From positions 33,665-97,664 of the forward strand of contig NZ_JACXAE010000082.1 of the NCBI RefSeq assembly GCF_014698965.1: a stretch of 64,000 nt of DNA, in the 5' to 3' direction. The notes beneath the pieces were generated by a model that made no database searches, was not told where the DNA came from, and was given only the letters and a program-made list of their open reading frames with translations. A program made the translations under genes and the position numbers. Below are positions 42,459-61,564 of the stretch, one piece after another (the first letter of the stretch is position 1; each line of letters opens with the position of its first letter). The DNA is from Iningainema tapete BLCC-T55. GTDB lineage: Bacteria > Cyanobacteriota > Cyanobacteriia > Cyanobacteriales > Nostocaceae.

Positions 42459-44045
42459 TTAGGCTTGCTGTACTCCCGGACGACCATTTTCTACTACAAA
42501 TGAAGCACGAGTACTAATCGTGCCAGATTGGGTTGTCACGTTTGACATAACTTGATAGTCTGATTGCCAGTTTGAAGGAGTCACGATGCAGCGAACATAG
42601 CCCCGTTGATTATTGAAGAATTTAATGTGGGGGTTGTCTGGTAGGTAAGCTTCAACACCAGGGCTAGAGTCTGCCCCATCTCCACCGGAGGTAATTGAGG
42701 TACAAACGAATTCACTTCCAACTATAGCAGATTCTGGGCGATCAAAGTCAGCTTTGAGATCCATTGCCCAGTTGTTATGCACATCGCCCGTTAAAACGAC
42801 TGGATTAGAAGGTTTGCGTTGTTCTAAGAAATGTAGTAGGCGATCGCGAGAAGCCAGATAACCATCCCACTTATCCATACTGAAAGTTGCGCCTTCCCCT
42901 GGTGTAAAGTCTCTCTGTGCAACAATCACCTGTTGGGCAAGTATATTCCATTGTGCCTGCGAACGATCTAAACCACGGTACAACCAATCTTCTTGACGCT
43001 TGCCAGTAATTGTTGCTGAGGAGTCGAAATTCTCTGGGCAACGTTCTTTTGTACCATCTCCACAAGGCTGATCTGTGCGATACTGGCGGGTATCTAGCAC
43101 ATGGAAGGTTGCCAATTTACCGAAGTTAAGCCGACGATAAAGTTGCATATCCGCTCCCCTAGGTCGCGAGAATGGTCGTAGCGGCATATGTTCATAGTAT
43201 GCTTGATAGGCAAGCGCACGTCGTTGTAAAAAGACAGCGCGATCTTGATCTGGTTCGTTATCAACTTCCGAAATGTCATTGGCGTAGTTGTTTTCCACTT
43301 CGTGATCGTCCCAGGTGACAATCCAAGGAAACGCCGCATGAGCCGCTTGTAAGTTTGGATCGGTTTTGTAGAGGGCGTGACGATTGCGATAATCTTCTAA
43401 AGTGAATATTTCTGAACCATTATGCTGTCTGACACGACCTGGGGTGATTCCTCCCTCATATATATAGTCGCCTACATGCACTACTAGGTCGAGTTCTTCC
43501 TCTGCCATGTATTTGTAAGCTGTGAAGTACCCCTGCTCGTAGTGTTGGCAAGAAGCAAGTGCAAAGGCAAGTCTACTGGCGTTACTTTCTGGGCGAGGAG
43601 CTGTTCTGGTGCGACCAATTGGACTTGCTTCTGTTCCTGAGATAAACTGATACCAGTACCAAGTATCTGGTTTAAGTCTATTTACCTCTACTCGCACTGA
43701 GTGAGCGAATTCTGGAATGGTAATCTCAGTGCCTTTTGCGACAATGTTCTTCATCTTGGGATCGGTTGCCACAAGCCATTCAATTGGCACGTTGACAGAT
43801 GGCATTCCTCCTCCATTTAAGGGATCGGGAGCTAGACGAGTCCAGATTACCACGCTGTTGGGATCGGGTTCTCCCGACGCTATACCGAGTGTAAAAGGAT
43901 AACTGGGAAATTTGACTTGGGCGATCGCACGTTGGTGGAATTGGTTGGCAATCAAAAAACCAGTTACTGCCCCAGCCCCAACGATTAAGTTGCGTCGCTT
44001 AATGGGACTGGAAAGAAGCTGCTCAAAATTCCTATAATTTACCAT
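42459..44045 (-). CDS. phoD: PhoD-type alkaline phosphatase with Tat-like signal
   Basis: KRRNLIVGAGAVTGF; FTLGIASGEPDPNSVVIWTRLAPDPL; VVHVGDYIYEGG; TWDDHEVENNYAND; VVLTGDVHNNWA. Confidence 0.93.
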   Translation of the reverse strand: MVNYRNFEQLLSSPIKRRNLIVGAGAVTGFLIANQFHQRAIAQVKFPSYPFTLGIASGEPDPNSVVIWTRLAPDPLNGGGMPSVNVPIEWLVATDPKMKNIVAKGTEITIPEFAHSVRVEVNRLKPDTWYWYQFISGTEASPIGRTRTAPRPESNASRLAFALASCQHYEQGYFTAYKYMAEEELDLVVHVGDYIYEGGITPGRVRQHNGSEIFTLEDYRNRHALYKTDPNLQAAHAAFPWIVTWDDHEVENNYANDISEVDNEPDQDRAVFLQRRALAYQAYYEHMPLRPFSRPRGADMQLYRRLNFGKLATFHVLDTRQYRTDQPCGDGTKERCPENFDSSATITGKRQEDWLYRGLDRSQAQWNILAQQVIVAQRDFTPGEGATFSMDKWDGYLASRDRLLHFLEQRKPSNPVVLTGDVHNNWAMDLKADFDRPESAIVGSEFVCTSITSGGDGADSSPGVEAYLPDNPHIKFFNNQRGYVRCIVTPSNWQSDYQVMSNVTTQSGTISTRASFVVENGRPGVQQA

Positions 44046-44385
44046 TGTTTTTCCCTGATAAATCTACGAATAAGTGACGAGGTTTCCCTACTTTATTACC
44101 TTTGTTAGCGGGGATAGTTATACTGTGATATGTGGTAATCTTCACTTAGTTATGAACATTACTTTTTTTATGAACCGCCTTCGCGCAGCGTCTCGCAGAG
44201 AAGACGCCTAGAACGCCTTCACGCAGCGTCTCCGACAGGAGAAGAAAAGAAAGAATTGTGTTTACTAATTATTTGGGTGTGCTATATATGAAAACTGCTT
44301 GATTTTCCAGCTAGAGCTAAGGAGTTAGCTGTTGCTTTGCCTAAATAAATTTACCAATTAAAGATTAATTTTTTGCAAAGGAATA

Positions 44386-44404
44386 GTTAATATCAGCTTA
44401 ATCT
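44386..44404 (+). promoter_or_regulatory. Candidate PHO-box (two repeats) upstream of nuiA
   Basis: GTTAATAT-CAG-CTTAATCT; 11-bp periodicity; second unit fits PyTTAAPyPy(T/A). Confidence 0.4.
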
Positions 44405-44444
44405 GCTGAAAATAGCAAACTTTATCGAGGGTTGAGGAGGAATT

Positions 44445-44837
44445 ATGAGTATTGTAGAAACCTTGTCTCAAGCAAGTAATGCCTTGCTAATGCCAAGCGA
44501 GTCTGATTATCCTTTCGAGCCTTTTATCTGGTTAGGTGAAGGTAAAGAAGTATTAACAACTGAGAAACTCCTGCAACTGACAAATCACCCTATCAATTCA
44601 CCAGTTGAGACAGTAGATTTGGATTATTTATTTCGCAACGTTGCTCAAGAACAAGAATGGCATGATGCACAACAGAAAGCGAATGTCTCAAAATTTAAGT
44701 CGCTTATAGATACGCTCAAAGCTAATCTCAAAGACTTGAAGGTTTATCGGGTTGGCATAATCGAAATTGATGTTTACATTGTTGGGAAAGCAGCAAATGA
44801 TTTAGCGGGGCTGGCAACCAAAGTTGTGGAAACTTAG
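44445..44837 (+). CDS. nuiA: Nuclease A inhibitor-like protein
   Basis: LLMPSESDYPFEPFIWLGEG...VDLDYLFRNVAQEQEWHD...VYRVGIIEIDVYIVGKAANDLAGLATKVVET resembles Anabaena NuiA. Confidence 0.88.
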   Translation: MSIVETLSQASNALLMPSESDYPFEPFIWLGEGKEVLTTEKLLQLTNHPINSPVETVDLDYLFRNVAQEQEWHDAQQKANVSKFKSLIDTLKANLKDLKVYRVGIIEIDVYIVGKAANDLAGLATKVVET

Positions 44838-44918
44838 CAAGTTAAAAACCCCTCCCTACCCTCTCCTTATAAGGGGAGGGAGGGGGTGGGGTGTGGGGTA
44901 TTTTGAACCGTCAACAGT

Positions 44919-45776
44919 TTATGAAGTAGGACCATTATCAACTCTAGATTCAATCACAGATTGGACAGACGTACTAATATTGGAAAGGAAGTCGTAGCCT
45001 GTTTGGGATTCGATGTAATCCACAGTGGTGCGGAATGCTCCCCAATTAGCAGAGCGATTCCCCTGAGTATTCGGGGTATCAATAGCAATGACTCGCGTAT
45101 TCGTATTGACGCCACCAGTACCAGTGCCGGGGTTTGTCACGACAATAATTTTGAAGAGTCGCTCAGGAACTGTAATATAACCATTAGCTATGGTTCCTCC
45201 ATAGCCGTATCCCCCCGCAATGATGTACAGTTCTTTACCCTGTTGCGTTACCAATGTCCTAGCGTAGTTTTCCAATTGTGCCCAATAGCCTTGATTGTTA
45301 TCAGGTGCTTGGGGTACTATGTTGGTCATTAAGAATGTTGCTGAATTATTGGCGACTGTATTGGTTCGGTCAGCCGAAGGACACATATGTCCCCTGTCAT
45401 ATCCACTACCAGTGTAATCGGAACTGGTGACTCGATAATACCCAGCAGGCAGTGTAGTATCTTCGCGAAAGTTATCTTGTCTGGGAGCGCTACCGAGCCA
45501 TGAAGAGTTGAGTTGCCAACTTACCCAGTTAGGAGTACTGTTTGAATCGCTGTAAGATAAAGCGTACTGGGTTTTTACCATCAAATAATTGTCGTAATTT
45601 GCTGCATTTGTAGTCGCTCCACTCGGGTTGCCCATTGTCAAGTGAACGCTAGTTTGAGCGGTTGCCTTTTTTAAAGAACTGTAAATACCAGCAGAGGCGA
45701 TTAGTAAAACTACCAGCAGAAATAAAATTAATCTGCCTGCTAACCTTCTGGAGAATAGCGACTTAAACATTATCAA
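44919..45776 (-). CDS. nucA: Secreted DNA/RNA non-specific endonuclease (NucA-like)
   Basis: Catalytic motif YDRGHMCPSADRT; NIVPQAPDNNQGYWAQLENYAR; N-terminal signal/anchor. Confidence 0.92.
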   Translation of the reverse strand: MIMFKSLFSRRLAGRLILFLLVVLLIASAGIYSSLKKATAQTSVHLTMGNPSGATTNAANYDNYLMVKTQYALSYSDSNSTPNWVSWQLNSSWLGSAPRQDNFREDTTLPAGYYRVTSSDYTGSGYDRGHMCPSADRTNTVANNSATFLMTNIVPQAPDNNQGYWAQLENYARTLVTQQGKELYIIAGGYGYGGTIANGYITVPERLFKIIVVTNPGTGTGGVNTNTRVIAIDTPNTQGNRSANWGAFRTTVDYIESQTGYDFLSNISTSVQSVIESRVDNGPTS

Positions 45777-45836
45777 TCAGTAAACTCACCCAATAAGTTA
45801 AGGGTATCTCTATAAGCAATATGACAGTAAGTTTTT

Positions 45837-45866
45837 AGATTAAATAAGGAATAAGCTTTAGTTAAA
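45837..45866 (-). promoter_or_regulatory. Candidate PHO-box (three repeats) upstream of nucA
   Basis: Minus strand TTTAACTA-AAG-CTTATTCC-TTA-TTTAATCT; two units fit PyTTAAPyPy(T/A) fully, exact 11-bp spacing, 61-90 bp before the start. Confidence 0.55.
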
Positions 45867-45918
45867 AATAGGAGAACAGGAATGGCGGTCGCCATCCCAG
45901 TAAAATAGCACTAGCTTT

Positions 45919-46320
45919 CTACAAGCCTTGCTGCATAACTTGAGCGATTTCACTATACGCATCTGTCCAAGCTTGTTTCACCTCTGGGTTCCAATCATCT
46001 CCCAAGTAATACTCAAAAGTTTTCAACAGTGTTGCGCCAATCATCGGATAATGCTCGGGCAACACACTATACTCTAGATGTCTTGCACCTAATCCTCTGA
46101 GAGCTTGGTTTAGCACATCTGACTTGCGAAGATTCTCAACTACCAAAACTAAAGCACTTAGCAAATGTTTCCTCTGTTCTACCATGTTGGTATGAGCAAA
46201 CAAAGGCTGAACATCAGGATAGTCAGCAAATAGGTTGTCGTAAAAGCTAGCTGCAAACTCTGTAGAATGAGGCTTGATCTGAGCAAAACTCTGTTCTAAT
46301 ACTTCGACATTTAATGACAT
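45919..46320 (-). CDS. Globin family protein
   Basis: LEQSFAQIKPHSTEFAASFYDNLFADYPDVQPLFAHTNMVEQRKHLLSAL. Confidence 0.9.
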   Translation of the reverse strand: MSLNVEVLEQSFAQIKPHSTEFAASFYDNLFADYPDVQPLFAHTNMVEQRKHLLSALVLVVENLRKSDVLNQALRGLGARHLEYSVLPEHYPMIGATLLKTFEYYLGDDWNPEVKQAWTDAYSEIAQVMQQGL

Positions 46321-46563
46321 TGTTAGCTTAAACCTTTTCCAATCTTCTTAACGAATTGAAGATACAGCGTCACGATAACCACTTAATCATCTCTTGAAGC
46401 TTATATCGATTGCACATTATAGCAGGCGTTAGCAAAACTGCCAAGTAGGAAAAGTTTAGCTGTCTTGTTAGCTACGATTAGATCCCGCTAACCCCCCTTA
46501 AAAAGGGGGGCTACGTCTCTTTAAACCCCCTTTTTAATAAGAGGGTCACTGTAGACGGGGGGA

Positions 46564-48975
46564 TTAAACAAATTTGCCTTTGGCTTTGAGCCGACGGATG
46601 CCAATTACAGTAGGACGAGGTAAACCTTTTGGTTCACCTTTACCACCATCATTAACAGAAATGTTACTAGGCCAGCTACTGCCACGAGGTACGGTACGTG
46701 TCTGGTTGAAGGTAACACCATCCAAATCAAGAATTTCAATGCTGCGGCTCAGTATTGTGCCATCATTAACTGGACAGTCTTCTCCAGGATGCTGTACGGA
46801 GATAATTAGTGTATCACCAACAAAAGTTGGTCCAGTCATCTCGCAACGCACTGGTCCTTGAGCAAAGGGTACTACAGTTCCCGCTTTTGGTCCACTGGTA
46901 GGAATGAAGAACAACCAGTTATTACCAAAGACGCCTGTAAAGTTAGAAACATTTCCACTAGCTGAGTGATTGATAGTAGTTGGGGTTGCCGCAGCACCGA
47001 CATTAAAACCGTTGTGAGTACCGGTAGACATGTCAGTTACACCCCAGACATTTCCTTGCGCATCAAATACCAGGTTATCCACATTGCCAAAACCTGCACC
47101 TGACTCGGAACCGGCTTCTCCACCTTGGGCAAATCTCTCCCACCGGAAGGTATTACCTGTACCGTCTGCACTATCTTCAATAATCTTGTAAATTCCGCCA
47201 GACTGCTGAGTAGCGTTAGGTGCTGTGCTTAATTTGGCAACTTGGAAAATGCGGGAATCTGGGTATCCGTCACTTCCTGGCGCACCGTCAGTGTAGGAGA
47301 TAAATACTTCTTTAGTGCGGGGATGCACTTCTAAATCTTCGGGACGGGCTGTGGGGGTTCCTCCAGCTAAGTTGGCGGCGAGGAAAGCATCACTGAGAAC
47401 CGCACCTTGAGTTGTATAGAAGTCAGAAAGAGTCTTGTTTTGATAATCGCTCAGGGCTGTTGCTTCGTTGGTGCGATCGCAATTAAAAGCACCACCATCA
47501 ACTGTTTGTCCAGCAATGCCATTGCGTCTGGGCAGTTTTAACAAACCATTTGTTTGTGCTGAACCCAAAGCAGCAAATTCTACTGAAGAAATCACTGATG
47601 GTGTAATGGGGTTAGTAGCAGTGTTTAATAGTAAAGGTATCCACTCTCCTGTACCGTTTGGATTGTAACGAGCCACATACAGAGTTCCGTCTTCCCACAA
47701 CTGACTATTATTTTTATCAGTTGGTGAGTCGATCGTACCTGTACTGACAAACTTCCAGGTATGTCCGCCGCGTCTGTCATCTCCCATGTAGCCAATTAAT
47801 TTTCTACCAGCTTCAGCACGCATGGCTATGTTTTCGTGGCGGAAACGACCTAGCCAAGTGTGTTTGCGCGGACGGAAATCAGGATCTGCGGGATCGACTT
47901 CTACCATCCAGCCATATTTTTCTCCCACTAAACCAAAAGTTTTGCCCGTGGTGCTGTCGGTGTAACCTGTTTGTGTACCATCTGGCTTAACTGATTCTGT
48001 CACACCAACGAAAAACGCTGTAGCGCCTTGGAAGTTTTCTTCGGCAGAGAGAATAGTTCCCCAAGGAGTTGTCCCACCAGAACAGTTATAAGCAGTACCT
48101 ATAATTTTGTTACCTAGTCCATCAGCACTGAGAGGGAAAACTTCTTCTGCCGTAGGACCAGTACCAATCAAATAGTTGTCGTCGCCTTGTTGGTAGCTTA
48201 AACTTCCCCAAGAGGTGACATCTTGGTAGCCATCTGTACGTTCTTTGTTAATTCCCAGCCCAGATAAACCATGCAGGCGACGGTTTTTAGGATCTCTGAC
48301 TACAGCGAAACGACTGTTGTCATTGCTGCGGGAAATACGGACGATGGAACCGCCCAAGTTATATAAAAATTCACCATCAACTTCTAGATTTCTGGTGGTG
48401 GGGAACTCGCGTCCGATGACTGCGGCAAAAGTACCGGGGAGTGCTTGTACGTCTGTAGGTGCTTCTGGTGCTAAGCCAGAAAATGGGTAACTGACGTATT
48501 CGTGATTTACCCACAAATAACCATCGTTGCTACCGTTGATCGGTACAAAACCCGTGTAGTCACAGTTGTAACCAAAGTACTCTTCTGTGTTCGGGAAGAC
48601 GCGATCGCCCCAACCAACAATTACATACCGTTCATACTGTGGTGGTACGATCACATCGTCTAAGACATTGTAGCTAGGTAATTTCACATTAGCTGATGCT
48701 TCAATAATGTTTCCTTGTCCAAAAGCTATAGGCAAGAAATTTTTGTATTCTCTATAAATAGGTAGAGGATGAGGTAGGCGTACTGGTGTAAAACTCAAAG
48801 GAATAGTCTTTGCTTCTACTACGGATGCTGCATTACCTAGTACTTGATCTACTAGTACAGCACCTGCACTTCCGGCAAAAAATAGTAACACCTGTCTCCG
48901 ACTTAAGTTAGACATTGAATTGTAATGCTCCTGTTTTGTAAATTTTGACCCTAGCAGTTTTTTCCAGCACAACAA
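46564..48975 (-). CDS. phoX: PhoX-family (DUF839) phosphatase with Tat signal; likely start at 48915 (MSNLSRRQVLL)
   Basis: SRRQVLLFFAGSAGA; GTILSAEENFQG; EDLEVHPRTKEVFISYTDG; GPVRCEMTGPTFVGDTLIISVQHPGE. Confidence 0.92.
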   Translation of the reverse strand: MLCWKKLLGSKFTKQEHYNSMSNLSRRQVLLFFAGSAGAVLVDQVLGNAASVVEAKTIPLSFTPVRLPHPLPIYREYKNFLPIAFGQGNIIEASANVKLPSYNVLDDVIVPPQYERYVIVGWGDRVFPNTEEYFGYNCDYTGFVPINGSNDGYLWVNHEYVSYPFSGLAPEAPTDVQALPGTFAAVIGREFPTTRNLEVDGEFLYNLGGSIVRISRSNDNSRFAVVRDPKNRRLHGLSGLGINKERTDGYQDVTSWGSLSYQQGDDNYLIGTGPTAEEVFPLSADGLGNKIIGTAYNCSGGTTPWGTILSAEENFQGATAFFVGVTESVKPDGTQTGYTDSTTGKTFGLVGEKYGWMVEVDPADPDFRPRKHTWLGRFRHENIAMRAEAGRKLIGYMGDDRRGGHTWKFVSTGTIDSPTDKNNSQLWEDGTLYVARYNPNGTGEWIPLLLNTATNPITPSVISSVEFAALGSAQTNGLLKLPRRNGIAGQTVDGGAFNCDRTNEATALSDYQNKTLSDFYTTQGAVLSDAFLAANLAGGTPTARPEDLEVHPRTKEVFISYTDGAPGSDGYPDSRIFQVAKLSTAPNATQQSGGIYKIIEDSADGTGNTFRWERFAQGGEAGSESGAGFGNVDNLVFDAQGNVWGVTDMSTGTHNGFNVGAAATPTTINHSASGNVSNFTGVFGNNWLFFIPTSGPKAGTVVPFAQGPVRCEMTGPTFVGDTLIISVQHPGEDCPVNDGTILSRSIEILDLDGVTFNQTRTVPRGSSWPSNISVNDGGKGEPKGLPRPTVIGIRRLKAKGKFV

Positions 48976-49107
48976 CTCGCAACTGTTTTACTTTTGCCTT
49001 TGCCGCTGAAAAATTAAAAATATTAACTGTGATGGCTAATCCAGCCCCGAAAAAAATTTTGGAGCTTCCGTGAGTGCAAACTGTAATAATCGGAATCTAC
49101 GACGTAT

Positions 49108-49137
49108 AAGTTAAGACCAGGTAATCAGATAATTAAT
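49108..49137 (-). promoter_or_regulatory. Candidate PHO-box upstream of phoX
   Basis: Minus strand ATTAATTA-TCT-GATTACCT-GGT-CTTAACTT, 11-bp spacing; middle unit weak. Confidence 0.35.
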
Positions 49138-49424: not shown

Positions 49425-49985
49425 ATGTTTATGAAATATCTTCAGCAAGAAGCCTTCTACACAGCAAGACACTGGCTAACTCAGTTGTGGACATGTGTAC
49501 CATTTTTGCTATCTGTTGCTGTGTTCTTGACAATTATTACTTGGAAAAGTCCTGTTATGTTGTTTTGTCTACTCATAGGTACTGTCGCTACCTTAGTATT
49601 AGAGCAAATAGGACGAAATACTCGCTTATCCAAGTACTCTGTGATTATATCACAAATAGCATTCGTAGCAATACTGAGTTTTTTTTGGATAGATCACTTT
49701 GCCGATCCAGCCGCAGCTCAGTTTTTTGGTAGAGCTGAATCTTTCTTTAAAAACAACTTCCAAGGTGCAGAAGGAGGAGGCGCTCAAGCAGCAGTTAGCC
49801 TTATATTCAACGTGCTGCGGGCAATTTACCTGCTCTACATTGCGGTTTCTCTCATTGGTGTAATCAATGCAGTCCGCAAGGATGAAGACTGGCAAAGTAT
49901 TGCGCGAACTCCTTTATTAGTCGTTGTCGCGGTGACAATTGCTGATGTACTTACAGGCTTCATCATTGGCAATACTAACCCATAA
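49425..49985 (+). CDS. Membrane protein, candidate VirB2/TrbC-like component
   Basis: Several hydrophobic segments, first gene of the T4SS-like run; assignment by position and topology. Confidence 0.45.
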   Translation: MFMKYLQQEAFYTARHWLTQLWTCVPFLLSVAVFLTIITWKSPVMLFCLLIGTVATLVLEQIGRNTRLSKYSVIISQIAFVAILSFFWIDHFADPAAAQFFGRAESFFKNNFQGAEGGGAQAAVSLIFNVLRAIYLLYIAVSLIGVINAVRKDEDWQSIARTPLLVVVAVTIADVLTGFIIGNTNP

Positions 49986-50166
49986 ACTAAGCATCTGTGG
50001 TTTTCAACTTGCGTATTCGTAAGGGGTGCTAATGGTTCATGGCTAATAGCAATTAGCGATTAGCGATTCTTCTATTAGCGACTAGATAAGAAAATATGCA
50101 ACTTACACCTACAAAAGGTTAATAATTTATCTAAACTAAGAAAGAGGAATAACTCAGCAATTAGTT

Positions 50167-50538
50167 ATGACCAAAGAGCGAGAAGATGAATTTCGTCCAG
50201 TCAACCAAATTCTAGGGGCACAACCTTCACTAGGACCAATTCCTGCCGATCAAGTCTTTCCTTGGACACTTATTATCCTTGGTTCCTACTTGATCGTCAA
50301 CGGTGTTTTTGGAGGCATTTTTCAAAATGATTTCCAAAAATGGTTGTGGACGCTTCTCATCGCGGGATGGGGCATGGCTACTTGGTGGATATTAACTGGT
50401 GGTAGGAGCTGGCGTTTTTTAAGCAAGTTTATTGCGGTTCCCTCTTGGACAAGAGGTAGCGCACGTTATTTAAGCCTTATGGAAGTTAATCATGAAGCAA
50501 AAAATCGGAAAACAAAGCGTCGGCGGAAGCGGCGGTGA
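50167..50538 (+). CDS. Small two-TM protein, candidate VirB3-like component; overlaps the VirB4 gene
   Basis: Two hydrophobic segments followed by a basic tail; 47-bp overlap with the next ORF. Confidence 0.45.
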   Translation: MTKEREDEFRPVNQILGAQPSLGPIPADQVFPWTLIILGSYLIVNGVFGGIFQNDFQKWLWTLLIAGWGMATWWILTGGRSWRFLSKFIAVPSWTRGSARYLSLMEVNHEAKNRKTKRRRKRR

Positions 50539-53242
50539 GACGACTACTAGATTAACACCATTTGAAGATGCTTTACATCTGTCTTCCATGCTCAGAGTGG
50601 CACTGGATGGGAGAGATGTAGGTGCTTACCTTTTGACAAAGGGCAACCAAAAAGATCAGTTCTGTTTTGTTTTTGGTTTTGAGTGCCGAGGTATTCACAC
50701 TACCTTGACAACTGACCAGATTGACACAATTTGTAATAATATCGAAGTCGGGTTAAAAGATATCCCCACAGGTGAAAGAATGACGTTTCATATGGGGTCT
50801 TTTAGTTCAGATAAAATACGCCAAAAAGAACTTACAGAACTAATTAAAAAAACGACATCGCCAAATATTAAATATCTGCTGATGGCAGAGCGATCGCGCA
50901 TTCAAGAACTGACTCGTTCTGGGATCCGCAAACCAAAGTTTCTGCGGGTGTATGTAACATACACTGTCGAACCAAACTCGACAGAAACCTCAGATTGGAT
51001 CGAGAGGTTTTTGGCAAGAGGTGAATTATGGTGGTTAAAATTCAAAGGTGATTTTACAGAAGCAGAAAACCAGCGCATTGAGACTGTAATTACCAATGCT
51101 TATAAAGAAGGTTTTCGTCGTTGGGAACAAATATTATCTAACCAAATGGGCTTGGATATCAAGCCAATGAATGCTGTTGAACTTTGGGGAGAAATTTGGC
51201 GAAGATTTAACGATACTCAGCCCATAGATATTCCCCAATTGGTTACATTAGATGAAAATGGACTGCACGAACAAGTTTATTCAGATTTAGCTAGTACTAA
51301 GTTGCTCATAGACAATCTCCATAGTACAACTTTGTTGATGGAGTCTAGTGTACCATGTGCCGATCGCCGCTGGGTTCACGCTAACAATCGTTATATTGGC
51401 GTGATGACATTTCTAGAAAAACCAGGAGGTTGGTCAAGTAAATCTTCTCAATTACGCTATTTATGGGAACTTCTGGCTAGAGAAAGGGTTGTTGATACAG
51501 AAATTATTTGTCAGTTGACGGCAGCTAATCCAGCTATAGTAAAAGGTACTTTGCAAAGGGTACTGAAGCAGTCAAATACTACCGCATTGTTAGCGCAGGA
51601 AAAAAGTAAGACTATTGATGTTAGTGCGCAAATGAAGATGAGGAAATCGGTGGCGGCGCAAGAGCAATTGTATGAAGGAGCAGTACCGATTTACACAGCT
51701 ATAGCAATTTTAGTGCATCGCCCCAATCTGGAGCAGTTAGAAGAAGCGACAAGATACATTGAAAGCTGTTTTACTCGCCCTGCACAAGTAGTTAGAGAAG
51801 TAGAGTACGCTTGGAAAACTTGGCTGCAAACACTACCAATAGTGTGGGAAAGCTTGTTAGCAAAACCCTTTAACCGTCGCCAGCTTTATTTAACTAATGA
51901 AGTGATGGGATTGATGCCGTTAGTGCAAACTAGGGCAGGTGATAAAAAAGGTTTTGAGTTGATAGCCGAAGAAGGGGGAACGCCGGTTCATCTGGATTTG
52001 TTTAACCAGCATAAAAATTTAGCGCTGTTTGCGACAACTCGTGCTGGTAAGTCAGTATTAGTTTCGGGGATTTTGACTCAAGCTTTGGCGCATAACATCC
52101 CTGTAGTGGTGTTGGATTATCCCAAACCGGATGGTACATCTACCTTTACAGATTATACAGGATTTATGGAGGAGAATGGAGCTTACTTTGACATCTCGAA
52201 ACAATCGAATAACTTGTTTGAGCAGCCAGACTTGCGATCGCTGCCCCCAGAAGAACAACGTGATCGGATGCTTGATTATGTCTCGTTCCTAGAGTCAGCT
52301 TTGATGACAATGATTTTAGGATCGTCAACGGAAAATCAGCTACTTGCACAAACGGTACGCTCAATTATCAACTTGGCTTTAGGAACCTTCTTTACTGATG
52401 AGGGGATCAAACAGCGATATCGAGATGCAATTGAGGAGGGATTAGGTTCTGTAGCTTGGCAAAAAACCCCTACATTACAAGATTTTGTCACATTCTGCTC
52501 TCCAGAACATCTGGAACTGGATAGTTTAGGGGGGGCGATAGAAGATGCGCTGAGTCAAATTCGTTTGCGCTTGCGGTTTTGGCTTTCTAGTCGCGTAGGG
52601 CAAGCAATTTCTTCACCATCTAGCTTCCGTACTGATGCTCAACTTCTGGTTTTTGCGCTGAGAAACTTGTCGGATAGTGAAGATGCTGCAGTATTATCAT
52701 TGAGTGCTTATTCAGCAGCACTAAGGCGATCGCTAAGTAGTCCATCTTCAATCTTCTTTATCGACGAAGCACCAATTCTATTTGAATTCGATCAAATTGC
52801 CAGCTTAGTTGGGAGAATTTGTGCCAACGGTGCTAAAGCGGGGATCAGAGTCATTCTATCAGCACAAGACCCAGATACCATTGCCAAATCTAAAGCCGCA
52901 TCGAAAATTTTGCAAAACTTGTCAACCCGATTAATTGGGCGTATTCAGCCAGTAGCAGTAGATAGTTTTACAAATATCTTAAAATATCCCCGCGAAATTA
53001 TTGCCCGCAATGCATCAGAAAGCTTCTTTCCTCGCAAAGAAGGTGTATATAGTCAATGGCTACTAGATGATAACGGTATTTATACCTTCTGTCGCTATTA
53101 TCCTGGTTATGAGCAATTGGCAGTAGTTGCTAACAATCCCCATGAACAAACTGCTCGTACACAAGCTATGCAGGAATACGGTGATAAGTATGAGGCGATT
53201 TCTGTCTTTGCGCGTCAGTTATTGGCGGCGTTGCGGGGATGA
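50492..53242 (+). CDS. VirB4/TraC-like conjugative ATPase
   Basis: GTPVHLDLFNQHKNLALFATTRAGKSVLVSGILTQAL; Walker B SSIFFIDEAPILFEFD; VILSAQDPDTIAKSKAASKILQNLSTRLIGRI. Confidence 0.88.
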   Translation: MKQKIGKQSVGGSGGETTTRLTPFEDALHLSSMLRVALDGRDVGAYLLTKGNQKDQFCFVFGFECRGIHTTLTTDQIDTICNNIEVGLKDIPTGERMTFHMGSFSSDKIRQKELTELIKKTTSPNIKYLLMAERSRIQELTRSGIRKPKFLRVYVTYTVEPNSTETSDWIERFLARGELWWLKFKGDFTEAENQRIETVITNAYKEGFRRWEQILSNQMGLDIKPMNAVELWGEIWRRFNDTQPIDIPQLVTLDENGLHEQVYSDLASTKLLIDNLHSTTLLMESSVPCADRRWVHANNRYIGVMTFLEKPGGWSSKSSQLRYLWELLARERVVDTEIICQLTAANPAIVKGTLQRVLKQSNTTALLAQEKSKTIDVSAQMKMRKSVAAQEQLYEGAVPIYTAIAILVHRPNLEQLEEATRYIESCFTRPAQVVREVEYAWKTWLQTLPIVWESLLAKPFNRRQLYLTNEVMGLMPLVQTRAGDKKGFELIAEEGGTPVHLDLFNQHKNLALFATTRAGKSVLVSGILTQALAHNIPVVVLDYPKPDGTSTFTDYTGFMEENGAYFDISKQSNNLFEQPDLRSLPPEEQRDRMLDYVSFLESALMTMILGSSTENQLLAQTVRSIINLALGTFFTDEGIKQRYRDAIEEGLGSVAWQKTPTLQDFVTFCSPEHLELDSLGGAIEDALSQIRLRLRFWLSSRVGQAISSPSSFRTDAQLLVFALRNLSDSEDAAVLSLSAYSAALRRSLSSPSSIFFIDEAPILFEFDQIASLVGRICANGAKAGIRVILSAQDPDTIAKSKAASKILQNLSTRLIGRIQPVAVDSFTNILKYPREIIARNASESFFPRKEGVYSQWLLDDNGIYTFCRYYPGYEQLAVVANNPHEQTARTQAMQEYGDKYEAISVFARQLLAALRG

Positions 53243-53386
53243 GAACCCCCCTAGCCCCCCTTAGAAGGGGGGAATAAAGCCCCCTTTACAAGGGGGGTTG
53301 GGGGGTATCAACTATATTGTGGGAGATGGGGTGTTGAAAATAGGCAAAATATCAACTAGCTAAATTTATTTTTTAGGTAAAAATTT

Positions 53387-54262
53387 ATGCGCAAAACTAC
53401 CATTTTGACTCTTTCTTTAGCATTGCTAGGAATATTACCAGTTCTAGCACAGCAAATTAACCCTGATGATTTTACTAATACTTTCATCGGTAATAATAAT
53501 GAGAATCTGGGCAAGGTTCAAGATGATTTTTTTAATTATGCAAACGCTTTACAAGAATATCTCAATAATAACCTAACCAGAAAATTACAGCCAGTAGAAG
53601 ACTACGCTTCTAAAAATGCGATTGACGCTTCTCGAGGCAATCTTCAAATACACGATCCTTTTGCATTAGAAGACAGAGTTAAAGAGTACATCATTAACAA
53701 TCCCATCCCAAATAAATTTGAAAATAATCAAGAGCTACAAACATTGAGTGCTAGCAATGAAATTAATCGCCAAATTGCTCTGAGCGCAGTACAAGGTAAT
53801 TTAGGTAGAGAAGGGCAGTATCGATTACAAGGGAAGTTTAATGATGTGCAAAGTTTCCTGGAAAGAGTTGATAAATTTGTAGACAATGTTAAGGAAAATC
53901 AAAATAATTTCCTCAATCAATTAGTACAACAAGCTTGTCAAGTCAATCCTACTACTAATGTGATTGGCACAGCATGTGGAAGTGCAATTCAATCAAATTT
54001 ACAGGTTCAAAGCTTAATCATTCAGGGTGGGCAAGCAAAGATGATGGGGGAAACGCTTGTTACTACAACGCAACTAAATCAAGCTATGCAGTACTCTAAC
54101 TTGAATTTGGCAAATATTTCTCAACAGATGGAAGATGTAAATCGGGCGAGAAGAGTGGATGCATCAGTAGAGACAGCGCGACTTTTAAGAGCTACTGCTC
54201 AAGTAGATTTGCTGGGAATAGGAGAACAGGATTCAGACGGCAGGAATCAGGCATCAAACTAA
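53387..54262 (+). CDS. Secreted protein at a VirB5-like position
   Basis: Signal peptide MRKTTILTLSLALLGILPVLAQQ; coiled-coil-rich C-terminal half. Confidence 0.5.
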   Translation: MRKTTILTLSLALLGILPVLAQQINPDDFTNTFIGNNNENLGKVQDDFFNYANALQEYLNNNLTRKLQPVEDYASKNAIDASRGNLQIHDPFALEDRVKEYIINNPIPNKFENNQELQTLSASNEINRQIALSAVQGNLGREGQYRLQGKFNDVQSFLERVDKFVDNVKENQNNFLNQLVQQACQVNPTTNVIGTACGSAIQSNLQVQSLIIQGGQAKMMGETLVTTTQLNQAMQYSNLNLANISQQMEDVNRARRVDASVETARLLRATAQVDLLGIGEQDSDGRNQASN

Positions 54263-54280
54263 ATTTTTCTATCTTCTTAA

Positions 54281-55333
54281 ATGTGGCTAAATAGTTCAGA
54301 CATGTTTGCACAAATTGGTGTTAATGAGATTATTAACAATGGTGCGGCGACGGCAAGAAGTATTGCTAGTAGCTGGAATCAGCAATGGTTAAGTTTATTG
54401 CAGAATGACACCAACAATAATATATATGGAGCGCTGACAAATCTAGGTGTCTTTTTTGCAGTGGGAACTCTGCTATTTTTCATGATCCAATGGTTAAGAG
54501 ATGTTTTAGATGGTGAATATTCGCGTCCAATATCTGCATTAATTTGGCCATTTGTTGTTGTATTACTGTTAACAAACTCCGGACAAGGAACGATGTTGTC
54601 TAGCCTTACTCTGGGTGTGCGAGATTTACTTAATGGAGTGAATCAGCAAGTAGTTGATGCAGGCAATATTGAGCAAAATTACCAGCAAGCATTGAATATG
54701 AGTATTGCGGAAGAAGTAGCTGGTTCCTACTTACGTCCTTGTCAGTCACTTACCGGACAACAACAAGCTGATTGCTTGATTATCGCTAGAGACAAAATTA
54801 ACGAGCTTTGGGATGAGTATAGAAGTTTATATGGCGATCGCCCTTGGATAACTAGACTACAAAATCAAGTTGTTCTATATTCTGAGAATACAGGCAATGT
54901 ACCAGAGATTGCATTTAATTCCTTCTTGGGTTCGACAGTACAAACAAGTATCAAAACTTTTTTCATTTCCTTGCAATTTGCTTTCCAGAATCTGCTAGAA
55001 TCTGCAATGTTGCTTGTAGCAGTTTTAGGACCATTGGCTGTAGGTGGATCTTTGCTACCTGTAGCCGGTAAACCTATTTTTGCATGGTTGACAGGGTTTT
55101 TATCGGTGGGAATTGCTAAAATTTCCTTCAACATTATCGCCATTGTTACTGCTACAGTGATTGTCAATGGACCAGCACAAGATGCCAATGCTACTAATCC
55201 CGACTTAATGTGGTTCATAATTTTTCTGGGACTTTTGGCACCGATTTTATCTTTAGCTCTGGCTGCAGCTGGGGGATTTGCAGTATTTAACGCGATCTCG
55301 AATACAGCTTCTTGGGTGAGGGCAAGAGTGTAA
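54281..55333 (+). CDS. TrbL/VirB6-like polytopic membrane protein
   Basis: Multiple TMs: LLESAMLLVAVLGPLAVGGSLLPVAGKPIFAWLTGFLSVGIAKISFNIIAIV. Confidence 0.7.
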   Translation: MWLNSSDMFAQIGVNEIINNGAATARSIASSWNQQWLSLLQNDTNNNIYGALTNLGVFFAVGTLLFFMIQWLRDVLDGEYSRPISALIWPFVVVLLLTNSGQGTMLSSLTLGVRDLLNGVNQQVVDAGNIEQNYQQALNMSIAEEVAGSYLRPCQSLTGQQQADCLIIARDKINELWDEYRSLYGDRPWITRLQNQVVLYSENTGNVPEIAFNSFLGSTVQTSIKTFFISLQFAFQNLLESAMLLVAVLGPLAVGGSLLPVAGKPIFAWLTGFLSVGIAKISFNIIAIVTATVIVNGPAQDANATNPDLMWFIIFLGLLAPILSLALAAAGGFAVFNAISNTASWVRARV

Positions 55334-55361
55334 CAACTTTTGCGCTGGAATACTTATAATA

Positions 55362-56234
55362 ATGACTAATGGGGGATACGAAAGGTTTAGGGGAACGGGA
55401 GGGGTAATGGTAAGTTTACTAGAAAAACGAAAAAAACGCACTGGGGGTATTCTGACGCTCTTTGCGCTGACTACTTTTGGGCTGCATGTAGTAGCTTTAT
55501 TTTTATTAATATCTCAAGGGTTAGCTATTCGCAACCTCAGTCTGCAAAAATCTCCCACTTTCGAGCAACTAATTGATGGTAAACCAGTCACTGTTGCCAA
55601 CGATTTGGAACGGGAGCCACAAGCAATTCGTCAGTTTGTCAGTCAAACAATGACATCTATGTTCAACTGGTCAGGAACCCTACCAGCACAAAGTATAGAA
55701 CAAGCTACTAACCCTATACCAGATCAAGGAATATCTGTTCAAACCTCAACAGGCTCCAGCAAAAAAGTTACGACAAGCAGCTGGATTGCTAGTTTTGGCA
55801 TATCAGAAGATTTTCGCAAGGGTTTCTTAAGCACAATTGCTCAAATCACACCCGCAGAAGTCTTCACGAAAAACCCTAATCAAGCTATTTCAGGGCAATT
55901 AGTTATTAAACGGGTTTATCCTCCTGTCAAAATTGCCGAAGGTAAGTGGCGAGTTGGGATAGTTGCTGATTTGGTACAAAAAAAACGTTCTCAAGAAGAG
56001 CAGAAATTAATAGTTCCTTTTAACAAAGATTTGCTAGTCAGAGCAGTGGACACTTTTGTTTATCCACTATCTAACACAACAACTGATTTGCAAAAAGCAG
56101 TATATAGTATCCGTAATGCAAAAATGGAGATTTATGAAATTCGGAATTTATGTTTGATAGATGGATATAACACACAGACAAATGATAGTTTGAATTCTTG
56201 TGTTCCTGGTAGTTCCGGTAGTTTTATTAAATAA
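55362..56234 (+). CDS. VirB8-like protein, copy A
   Basis: Single N-terminal TM then FEQLIDGKPVTVANDLEREPQAIRQFVSQTMTSMFNWSG; paralogous to the next ORF. Confidence 0.55.
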   Translation: MTNGGYERFRGTGGVMVSLLEKRKKRTGGILTLFALTTFGLHVVALFLLISQGLAIRNLSLQKSPTFEQLIDGKPVTVANDLEREPQAIRQFVSQTMTSMFNWSGTLPAQSIEQATNPIPDQGISVQTSTGSSKKVTTSSWIASFGISEDFRKGFLSTIAQITPAEVFTKNPNQAISGQLVIKRVYPPVKIAEGKWRVGIVADLVQKKRSQEEQKLIVPFNKDLLVRAVDTFVYPLSNTTTDLQKAVYSIRNAKMEIYEIRNLCLIDGYNTQTNDSLNSCVPGSSGSFIK

Positions 56235-56249
56235 TATTATTAATTATTA

Positions 56250-56930
56250 ATGCAGTTACTTAAATCAGAAAACAAGAAAACTAACATACTGCCACTATTA
56301 GCAGTAGCAACATTTGGTTTAAATATAATTACTTTGTTAGTTTTAATGTTTCATGGAACTATATTACAGCAGTTGAACCGCAAAAATGCCACTCCAAGTT
56401 TAGCGCAACTGGCTGATGGTAGTGCTATCACAGTAGATCCGAAACAAAATATAGAGCGTCATCCAGAAACAATTCGGCGTTTTGTGGGTGAAACTATGAC
56501 TTTATTATTTACATGGTCGCAAAAACAGCCACCAAAAAATGTTTGGTTAATTGGTTCTCAACTACTAGCTAATGGTTTTCGGCAAAAATTTGAGACAGAA
56601 ATTTATAATTTAGGTCCTGAATATCAATCAGGAAATATAAGTAGAGGTACAGAAGGTTTATTGCTGTTACAAAGAGTTTCTCGACCAGAACAAATAGGTA
56701 AAGGCAAGTGGAAAGTGGAGGTGTTAGCAAATTATTTAACTTTGACAAGTTATGACTCTATAGGTAAGTCAACTCCTTTGAATAAACAAATATTAGTGAG
56801 GGTAGTAGATGATATACCAACTTCACCACCCAATGGACAACTTCCTTTGCAATTAGCAGTTCACCGCCTGGGTGAAGCAAAGCTAGAAATCTATAATATT
56901 TGTGACATTACAGAAAAAAACTGTTCCTAA
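56250..56930 (+). CDS. VirB8-like protein, copy B
   Basis: LAQLADGSAITVDPKQNIERHPETIRRFVGETMTLLFTWSQ aligns with copy A. Confidence 0.55.
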   Translation: MQLLKSENKKTNILPLLAVATFGLNIITLLVLMFHGTILQQLNRKNATPSLAQLADGSAITVDPKQNIERHPETIRRFVGETMTLLFTWSQKQPPKNVWLIGSQLLANGFRQKFETEIYNLGPEYQSGNISRGTEGLLLLQRVSRPEQIGKGKWKVEVLANYLTLTSYDSIGKSTPLNKQILVRVVDDIPTSPPNGQLPLQLAVHRLGEAKLEIYNICDITEKNCS

Positions 56931-56951
56931 AAATAAATCTTATTTAAAACT

Positions 56952-58712
56952 ATGACTAAAGATAAAATTCCCTCAGAACCTCCTCTAAATAGTTCAAATA
57001 CTCCAACCGTCCATGATTCTCAAAATAATGCTTCGAATTGGGAATCACGGATGGCAAGATTGGTTGGTTTGGAAGAAGAATCTCACTCTTCTGGAGAAGC
57101 AACCACTACAAGACAGCCTCTGCCTGAACCAGAAGAACCACAATCTGTTCAAAGTCGATCGCCTCTGTCATCTAACCCCTTTGCCAAGCTAGGCTTAGTA
57201 GGAGCAGGAACCTTGGCTCTGATTGTGTTTGCAGGCGTGTTTTTGACACTGGCAATGAATATCGGCAATCAAAAGCCCAAACCAAATCCTAATCTTGTAG
57301 TACAACCGCGATCGCAACCCACAACCAAACCAACTCCAGAACTACAACAAGAAGAAATAGAAGCACTAAAAACGAAACTTGCCCTAGCAGAACAAGCACA
57401 AGCTGTGCAATTAGCGCAACGACAACTGAGAAATCAAAAATCAACACCAACACCGCGAATTACAACTCAGCCCACTCGACGCCCAGAACCGCCACGAGTT
57501 GTCTACAGAGATAGACCATCAGTGGTAGCACAAAGAATACCAACACCTGTACAAACAGTTTACTTGCCTGCACGAGAGCCAGTAAAGCGCCCACAACCTC
57601 AACCAACCCGAATTACTCAACTACGACGAGAGCCGCCTCGGCAAGTAGCGACTGTACCCAGAAGAACCCTACCACCTGTATTGCCACCACTCCAACCTTC
57701 ACAACCGATCCCCACACCACCACCTTTGACACCAACTCCATCTTCTACACCAGATCCCATGCAAGAGTGGGCAAGGTTGGCGAAGTTGGGTAGCTACGGT
57801 CAAGTACCAGGTACTAAAAACCAAGGCGTAAATAATGCTACAATTGCTCAAGCAAACACAATTCCAGCACCACAACCTCTCACAGTCACTAAACCACCAA
57901 TTAGAGTTATCAATCCGCCCAGCCCCAGCCCGGTAAGTACTGCTACGAAGCAAAATTCCAAATCAGCAGTGGTAGGAAGTACTGCTAAAGCTGTATTAGT
58001 AACAGCTGTATATGGGGAAACTACTCCTACTAACAGAAGTAATACTCGTAGTGGAAATAATAGTGGCAATAATAATAGCGATAGTGGCAACAAAGAAGTA
58101 TTTGTAGCGCGGTTAACTGAGCCATTAAAAGCTGCTGATGGTACTTCTATCCTACCTAAAGACACACAAATATACTTGAACAATGATTCCACTTCCGATT
58201 CTGGTTTGATGAGGCTTAATGTCATCAAAGTTAGTTGGCAAGAAAAGAATGGTAATCGCGTAGAAAGGAACATCCCAGAAGGTAGTTTAGTGATTCGTGG
58301 TTCCAATGGTCAACCTACAGTAGGAGAGCAAAATCAAATTAGTACTGGCGGTTCACGCTTGGGAAGTGATATTAGAACAGGCATTTTCTCCGGTATTAAT
58401 AAAGGAGCAGAGTATGTTAACCGTCCCAGACAAGAGTGCGATACTCTTCCTTATCCAGTATTGAACGGTAATACTAATCCAAACGAAAACAACTCCCAAA
58501 ATACTATCACTTACAGAAGTTGCTATAACGCTAGCCCAGATCCAAGCATTGCCGCTGGATTTGTAGAAGGTATTACAAGAAGTATTGGTACTAATTTAGA
58601 GCAACGTAGTCGAGCGTCAAACGTTCCTAGACCACCACAACGAACTAACCTTTGGGTTTTGTCAGCAGGAAAACAAGTTGTACTGTTTGTTAATCAACCA
58701 ATACAGCTTTGA
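56952..58712 (+). CDS. VirB10/TrbI-like protein
   Basis: N-terminal TM, Pro-rich linker, C-terminal VFVARLTEPLKAADGTSILPKDTQIYL...GSLVIRGSNGQP...IRTGIFSGINKGAEYVN. Confidence 0.8.
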   Translation: MTKDKIPSEPPLNSSNTPTVHDSQNNASNWESRMARLVGLEEESHSSGEATTTRQPLPEPEEPQSVQSRSPLSSNPFAKLGLVGAGTLALIVFAGVFLTLAMNIGNQKPKPNPNLVVQPRSQPTTKPTPELQQEEIEALKTKLALAEQAQAVQLAQRQLRNQKSTPTPRITTQPTRRPEPPRVVYRDRPSVVAQRIPTPVQTVYLPAREPVKRPQPQPTRITQLRREPPRQVATVPRRTLPPVLPPLQPSQPIPTPPPLTPTPSSTPDPMQEWARLAKLGSYGQVPGTKNQGVNNATIAQANTIPAPQPLTVTKPPIRVINPPSPSPVSTATKQNSKSAVVGSTAKAVLVTAVYGETTPTNRSNTRSGNNSGNNNSDSGNKEVFVARLTEPLKAADGTSILPKDTQIYLNNDSTSDSGLMRLNVIKVSWQEKNGNRVERNIPEGSLVIRGSNGQPTVGEQNQISTGGSRLGSDIRTGIFSGINKGAEYVNRPRQECDTLPYPVLNGNTNPNENNSQNTITYRSCYNASPDPSIAAGFVEGITRSIGTNLEQRSRASNVPRPPQRTNLWVLSAGKQVVLFVNQPIQL

Positions 58713-58761
58713 ATGTAGAGACGCCATATATTGCGTCTATATCTTAACAAAAAATCGAATA

Positions 58762-59481
58762 ATGAACAACATCATCTACCAAAAGAACATCCCCAAAAAT
58801 CCCTATTTACAGCCTTTAATTTCCCTTTTTGTTTCAGCAGCAGCGTTATTACTAGCAGATAGTGCCATAGCTAATAATTCTGTTTTACGTTCTATATTTT
58901 CCTGCCAAGCTCAGGGTTTAGGGGGAGCAACACCCAACATTACAGTTTGGTTTCAGCAAGGTACAAACTTGAGCTTTATTCCCACTGGAGAAACAATTAA
59001 AAAAGTTTGGTTAGACGACCCATCACAGGTAACATTAGATTTTGATGGTCCAATGTGCCAGTTTGGTCAAGATAACAACACAGGAAATTGTGAAAACTCC
59101 GGTGCAAATGTCATTCACCTGCGACGAATTAAAAAACTAAATATTCCCGGACTTCCTAATACTGATACTACTCTTTTAACAGTGATAACAGAAGGGCAAG
59201 GCAGAAGAAATTTGTACACTTTCCAAGTTAACTATGGTGATGGTGATCCTGAATATAAAACTTTAGCAGTTTATCCTGATGCCGCTTCTAATACTGGAGC
59301 ATCTTGTATTAGACCAAATAATCCACCAACTCAAACTCCCAGAGTTACTCCGTTACAACCAACCAGAAACAACAATACACCAACAAGGAACAATAAGCCA
59401 GTAATACCTCCGGCAAACGACGAGAATACTCCAAGTTCTGGCGAACCGCTAGAATCACCCAACGAGAGAAGAGATGACTAG
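58762..59481 (+). CDS. VirB9-like secreted protein, copy A
   Basis: SIFSCQAQGLGGATPNITVWFQQGTNLSFIPTGETIKKVWLDDPSQVTLDFDG...VIHLRRIKKLNIPGLPNTDTTLLTVITEGQGRRNLYTFQVNYG. Confidence 0.6.
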   Translation: MNNIIYQKNIPKNPYLQPLISLFVSAAALLLADSAIANNSVLRSIFSCQAQGLGGATPNITVWFQQGTNLSFIPTGETIKKVWLDDPSQVTLDFDGPMCQFGQDNNTGNCENSGANVIHLRRIKKLNIPGLPNTDTTLLTVITEGQGRRNLYTFQVNYGDGDPEYKTLAVYPDAASNTGASCIRPNNPPTQTPRVTPLQPTRNNNTPTRNNKPVIPPANDENTPSSGEPLESPNERRDD

Positions 59482-60733: not shown

Positions 60734-61564
60734 ATGCACAACATCCTCTGCCAAAAAAACATCCCAAAAAATCCCTATTTCTTCCCTGCGGTTTCCCTTT
60801 GTTTCTCAACGGCAGCGTTATTATTGGGAGAACGTGCCATAGCTAATAACTCTGTTTTGCGCTCCATATTTTCCTGCCAAGCCCAAGGGTTAGGGGGAGC
60901 AACACCTACCATTAAAGTTTGGTTTAAGCAAGGGACAAACTTAAACTTCATTCCCACTGGAGAAACAATTAAAAAAGTTTGGTTAGACGACCCATCACAG
61001 GTAACATTAGATTTTGATGGTCAATTGTGTCCGGAATTTAGTCCACAAAGCAACAACACAGAGAATTGTGAAAACTCAGGTGCAAGTGTAATTCACATGA
61101 GGCGAATTCAAAAACTAAATATTCCTGGACTTCCTCACACTGACTCTACACTTTTAACAGTGGTAACAGAAGGGCAAGGTCGAAGAAAGTTGTACACCTT
61201 CCAAGTTGACTATGGTGATGATGCGCCTGAATATAATACCTTAGCAGTTTACGCTGACCCTCCTTCTGCTAGTGGAGCTTCTTGTGTAAGAGCCAGCAAT
61301 ACATCAAACAATGGCGGCACACTAAACTACGAGGAGTATACACTACCATCCGATGGCGGCACACCAAACTATGGGGATACACCACTAAAAGATGGCGATA
61401 CACCAAAATATGAGGGTACATCACCATACGATAGCGACACCCAAAACTACGAGGATACATCACCATACGATAGCGGCACACCAAACTACGATGCTATACC
61501 AAACTATAAGGGTATACCACCAAACTATAGGGGTACACTACCAACCGATAAGGAGAAAATATAG
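60734..61564 (+). CDS. VirB9-like secreted protein, copy B, with repetitive C-terminal tail
   Basis: Strong similarity to copy A through LYTFQVDYGDDAPEYNTLAVYADP, then tandem GGTPNYGDTP / SPYDSDTQNYEDT repeats. Confidence 0.6.
   Translation: MHNILCQKNIPKNPYFFPAVSLCFSTAALLLGERAIANNSVLRSIFSCQAQGLGGATPTIKVWFKQGTNLNFIPTGETIKKVWLDDPSQVTLDFDGQLCPEFSPQSNNTENCENSGASVIHMRRIQKLNIPGLPHTDSTLLTVVTEGQGRRKLYTFQVDYGDDAPEYNTLAVYADPPSASGASCVRASNTSNNGGTLNYEEYTLPSDGGTPNYGDTPLKDGDTPKYEGTSPYDSDTQNYEDTSPYDSGTPNYDAIPNYKGIPPNYRGTLPTDKEKI

What the first reader, a model, noticed from the sequence alone, without database searches (positions are those of the whole stretch)
44386..49137. PHO-box-like arrays point to a DNA-phosphorus scavenging regulon (NucA-NuiA-PhoX-PhoD)
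Seen: upstream of nucA, TTTAACTA-AAG-CTTATTCC-TTA-TTTAATCT; upstream of nuiA, GTTAATAT-CAG-CTTAATCT; upstream of phoX, ATTAATTA-TCT-GATTACCT-GGT-CTTAACTT; all with 8+3 spacing. Known: cyanobacterial SphR/PhoB boxes are repeats of PyTTAAPyPy(T/A) spaced by 3 nt. Inference: a secreted nuclease would supply nucleotides from extracellular DNA, PhoX/PhoD would release phosphate, and the NuiA inhibitor would protect the cell under the same control.
Basis: partly seen in the sequence, partly recalled or inferred. Interest (0 to 1): 0.66.

Follow-up and report, generated by a model that had tools for sequence, protein, structure and literature searches.

The report
Phosphate-starvation promoters flank a secreted nuclease

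Summary
The quoted sequences are present and two of three assignments hold. A matrix trained on published cyanobacterial Pho boxes finds the nucA array (45866-45837, -) as the best three-unit site in the 64-kb window; it beats all 193 background promoters sampled from the same genome. The phoX array (49137-49108, -) ranks second. Both are conserved: 26 of 29 phoX and 31 of 92 nucA upstream regions score above 12 at the 3-nt spacing, against 0-8 at other spacings.

The nuiA box is a misassignment. It is the other strand of a four-unit array (44402-44362, -) that points at the divergent phoD gene. 29 of 32 phoD promoters have the array (p<0.05), but only 1 of 78 nuiA promoters has a box.

The convergent nucA/nuiA pair is conserved in nearly every relative; linkage to phoX is seen only here. 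The structurally studied Anabaena NucA belongs to a plasmid-borne lineage without the box.

So this is an ordinary cyanobacterial Pho regulon with a nuclease member (NucA) for which I found no earlier report, and an inhibitor apparently outside it. Nothing was tested at the bench.

The parts
42459..44045 (-). phoD, PhoD-type phosphatase (528 aa) with a twin-arginine N-terminus (KRRNLIVGAG)
   Evidence: Pfam PhoD 5e-122 and PhoD_N; NCBIfam PhoD model matched below its cut-off
44362..44402 (-). four-unit Pho-box array of phoD: ATTAAGCT-gat-ATTAACTA-ttc-CTTTGCAA-aaa-ATTAATCT, -357 to -317 from the phoD ATG
   Evidence: p=0.003 against shuffles; 27 of 30 phoD promoters (own included) p<0.05 for a four-unit array; 3-nt spacing mean 11.1 against -1.2 to 1.2 at other spacings; also in L315 and L316
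44445..44837 (+). nuiA, NucA inhibitor (130 aa), no signal peptide, C-terminal Thr as in Anabaena NuiA
   Evidence: Pfam NuiA 1.3e-48; aligned to 2o3b chain B to its C-terminus, 7.5e-33
44919..45776 (-). nucA, secreted DNA/RNA non-specific endonuclease (285 aa), Sec-type signal sequence, DRGH motif; convergent with nuiA
   Evidence: Pfam Endonuclease_NS 6e-58; PDB 1zm8 and 2o3b, about 1e-90; only PF01223 gene in the genome
45837..45866 (-). three-unit Pho-box array of nucA: TTTAACTA-aag-CTTATTCC-tta-TTTAATCT, -90 to -61
   Evidence: score 19.8, p=0.0005; top three-unit site of the window; 0 of 193 background promoters as high; conserved in a large clade of nucA
45919..46320 (-). single-domain globin between nucA and phoX; no Pho box; not next to nucA elsewhere
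   Evidence: Pfam Globin 9.8e-19; box p=0.34; no globin near nucA in 40 other loci
46564..48918 (-). phoX, PhoX-type alkaline phosphatase (784 aa from the ATG at 48918) with twin-arginine N-terminus (SRRQVLLF)
   Evidence: Pfam PhoX 6.8e-128
49108..49137 (-). three-unit Pho-box array of phoX: ATTAATTA-tct-GATTACCT-ggt-CTTAACTT, about -219 to -190
   Evidence: score 15.8, p=0.0025; 26 of 29 phoX promoters (own included) score above 12 at 3-nt spacing against 0-7 at other spacings

Best explanation
The stretch holds three promoters of the SphR (PhoB-type) Pho regulon: nucA, phoX and phoD, each with an array of 8-nt units repeating every 11 bp and pointing into its gene (sites shown computationally; binding inferred). 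When phosphate runs out, the phosphorylated regulator would bind and switch on three exported enzymes (export inferred from the N-termini). NucA cuts extracellular DNA and RNA, and the PhoD and PhoX phosphatases release phosphate from small organic phosphates such as the products (chain of steps inferred from the enzyme families). NuiA, encoded tail-to-tail with nucA and lacking a signal peptide, stays in the cytoplasm and neutralises NucA that has not been exported. It has no conserved Pho box, so it is most likely expressed independently of phosphate, as an immunity protein would be.
For: An independent matrix from Su et al. 2007 (PMC1906773) finds the nucA and phoX arrays as the two best three-unit sites in the 64-kb window. 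Scores against shuffles and 193 genomic promoters. Orthologue footprinting with spacing, strand and reversed-matrix controls: phoX 26/29, nucA 31/92, nuiA 1/78; phoD 27/30 plus 2/2. Aligned nucA sites show conserved core columns at 11-bp phase with variable spacers, mostly starting at -82 to -104. Box presence is clustered on the NucA tree: 10 changes against 29.5 for shuffled labels. Positive controls in the same genome: a PstS-family gene with a box at -86, p=0.01, and a motif resembling the PCC 7120 sphX site (p=0.12) before another PstS-family gene. Protein identities. phoD (alr2234) about 30-fold up and nucH up in P-starved Nostoc PCC 7118 (PMC7564538). A NucA homologue (Alr7261) was found in the Anabaena PCC 7120 exoproteome (PMC4390845).
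Against: About two thirds of nucA promoters in the family lack the box. The window's nucA sits on a long branch outside the main boxed clade, so its box could be a separate gain. The 11-bp array shows a PhoB/OmpR-type regulator but does not by itself name SphR; the genome has many PhoB-like regulators and none passed the curated PhoB cut-off. The third phoD unit (CTTTGCAA) is off consensus. No expression data exist for this strain, and orthology of this phoD with alr2234 was not shown.
Confidence: 0.75

Rival explanations
1. One reading: nuiA is itself a Pho-regulon gene, so nuclease and inhibitor are induced together.
For: Two-unit match upstream of nuiA, p=0.003 against shuffles for two units. 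SphR bound to the phoD array 40-80 bp upstream of the nuiA start could in principle act in both directions.
Against: The match is the complement of the phoD array. nuiA orthologues have no box: 1/78 at 3-nt spacing, same as other spacings, although nearly all sit next to nucA. Two-unit matches are no commoner than the reversed control genome-wide.
Confidence: 0.12
2. The arrays are bound by another OmpR/PhoB-family regulator (for example RpaB) and respond to light or general stress rather than phosphate.
For: nucA middle units such as GTTTACAT resemble the RpaB HLR1 half-site (from my own knowledge); many PhoB-like regulators in the genome.
Against: HLR1 has a 10-bp period (own knowledge); an HLR1 model at that spacing finds 2 of 96 nucA promoters above threshold, while the SphR-trained matrix at 11 bp finds 31 of 92. 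The same array type lies before phoX and phoD orthologues.
Confidence: 0.12
3. Chance matches to an AT-rich loose consensus, with no regulation.
For: At two units and two mismatches the consensus is everywhere; a whole-genome three-unit scan gives 101 hits against 58 in the reversed control, so many single hits are chance.
Against: Background ranks, spacing-specific orthologue conservation and three such promoters within 5 kb.
Confidence: 0.04

Closest known systems
SphS-SphR Pho regulon of cyanobacteria (Synechocystis PCC 6803, Suzuki 2004; Su 2007, PMC1906773)
   Same: 8-nt YTTAAYYW-type units with 3-nt spacers, two to four units, upstream of secreted phosphatases and a secreted nuclease; alr2234 and alr4976 of PCC 7120 (both listed there as PhoD family) already predicted as members
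   Different: The nuclease member here is NucA (DRGH, Endonuclease_NS family), not NucH; I found no mention of NucA as a Nostoc Pho member in the text of PMC1906773 that I read
phoA-nucH operon of Synechocystis and nucH (alr0276) of Nostoc
   Same: Secreted nuclease under Pho boxes, induced by P starvation (PMC1906773, PMC7564538)
   Different: nucA is a separate gene with its own array and a dedicated cytoplasmic inhibitor
NucA-NuiA of Anabaena PCC 7120 (PDB 1zm8, 2o3b)
   Same: Homologous nuclease and inhibitor, convergent gene pair
   Different: The structurally studied NucA matches a plasmid-borne lineage (99.6% to Trichormus variabilis plasmid copies) whose promoter lacks the box (score -1.2); the boxed genes form a different, partly chromosomal clade plus this one

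Membership tests
SphR Pho regulon | tandem 8-nt units of YTTAAYYW type with 3-nt spacers upstream of the gene, same orientation (nucA, phoX, phoD) | tested here: met
SphR Pho regulon | the same for nuiA | tested here: not met
   1/78 nuiA promoters; the box belongs to the phoD array
SphR Pho regulon | induction by Pi limitation, dependent on SphR | not testable with these tools
   needs RNA work; literature support only for phoD and nucH in Nostoc PCC 7118
SphR Pho regulon | SphR encoded in the genome | tested here: inconclusive
   many PhoB-type regulators, best 246 bits against a cut-off of 296; the SphR orthologue was not singled out
NucA (DNA/RNA non-specific endonuclease) | Endonuclease_NS domain with DRGH motif and signal peptide | tested here: met
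NuiA | NuiA domain, C-terminal Thr, next to nucA | tested here: met
RpaB/HLR1 promoters | two (G/T)TTACA(T/A)(T/A) units with a 10-bp period | tested here: not met
   2 of 96 nucA promoters above threshold

The most novel reading that the evidence does not exclude
nucA-nuiA is a mobile two-gene effector-immunity-like cassette that has been wired into the Pho regulon, and lost again, on several branches through the nuclease promoter only, while the inhibitor stays outside phosphate control. The physiological role of the textbook Anabaena nuclease would then differ between lineages: P scavenging where it is boxed, something else where it is plasmid-borne and unboxed.
Probability: 0.35. Interest if true: 0.55.

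Novelty: new member of a known kind. Interest (0 to 1): 0.42.

Why it matters
NucA is a well-studied enzyme whose purpose in the cell is, to my knowledge, not settled. A conserved phosphate-starvation array in front of it in many Nostoc relatives gives a direct, testable role: feeding on phosphorus in extracellular nucleic acid. It also identifies which nucA lineage to test, since the classical plasmid copy lacks the array. The correction on nuiA changes the expected logic from co-induction to standing immunity.

Tried and rejected
Two-unit consensus counting genome-wide: uninformative. A 300-bp scan of phoD missed its array because it lies at -357 (corrected). HLR1/RpaB model: rejected. Cluster conservation: phoD lies next to nucA-nuiA only here and, as a 55%-identical PhoD, in G059 (L253); phoX and globin only here, so the clustering is not evidence of a conserved operon. 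Annotating the genome's other top box hits gave a mixed list with few clear Pho genes. A search for phosphonate genes next to phoD, to tie it to alr2234, gave nothing. Literature searches for NucA under phosphate starvation found no report of it.

Full report
What is there. The window lies in a 9.5-Mb genome whose closest held relatives are Nostoc- and Calothrix-type cyanobacteria. In order: phoD (42459-44045, -), nuiA (44445-44837, +), nucA (44919-45776, -), a globin (45919-46320, -) and phoX (46564-48918, -). NucA and NuiA match the solved Anabaena nuclease-inhibitor complex. NucA has a Sec-type leader, PhoX and PhoD have twin-arginine leaders, and NuiA has none (read from the sequence).

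Noticed in passing
window 49425-58712 (+): Run of genes right after phoX whose 916-aa member is a divergent VirB4/TraC-like ATPase (NCBIfam 1e-14); neighbours look like a type IV secretion or conjugation module but have no family match.
   Followed up: partly
window 58678-59481 and 60734-61564: Two similar secreted proteins without a Pfam match, an apparent duplication.
   Followed up: no
G000:C37:6196-8589 (L202): Second PhoX (70% identical) with a three-unit array (score 19.9) in the intergenic region on the opposite strand, pointing at a neighbouring secreted-protein gene.
   Followed up: partly
L078 (Tolypothrix PCC 7910 plasmid): Cluster of NucA, NuiA, a second NucA and an S1/P1 nuclease on a plasmid; L079 has nucA near C-P lyase genes.
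   Followed up: no
L071-L073, L075: Bacteroidales NucA proteins; three of them (L071-L073) branch beside the window's NucA (98/79 support), suggesting transfer between phyla.
   Followed up: partly
G000:C76:21767-21796 (L200): Highest-scoring three-unit Pho-type array met (25.9), in front of small uncharacterised genes.
   Followed up: partly
window, about 44304-44361 between the array and phoD: Beyond the array the phoD orthologues share a further conserved block (GGCAAAG..AACAGTTGACA type) that could be the core promoter or a second site.
   Followed up: no
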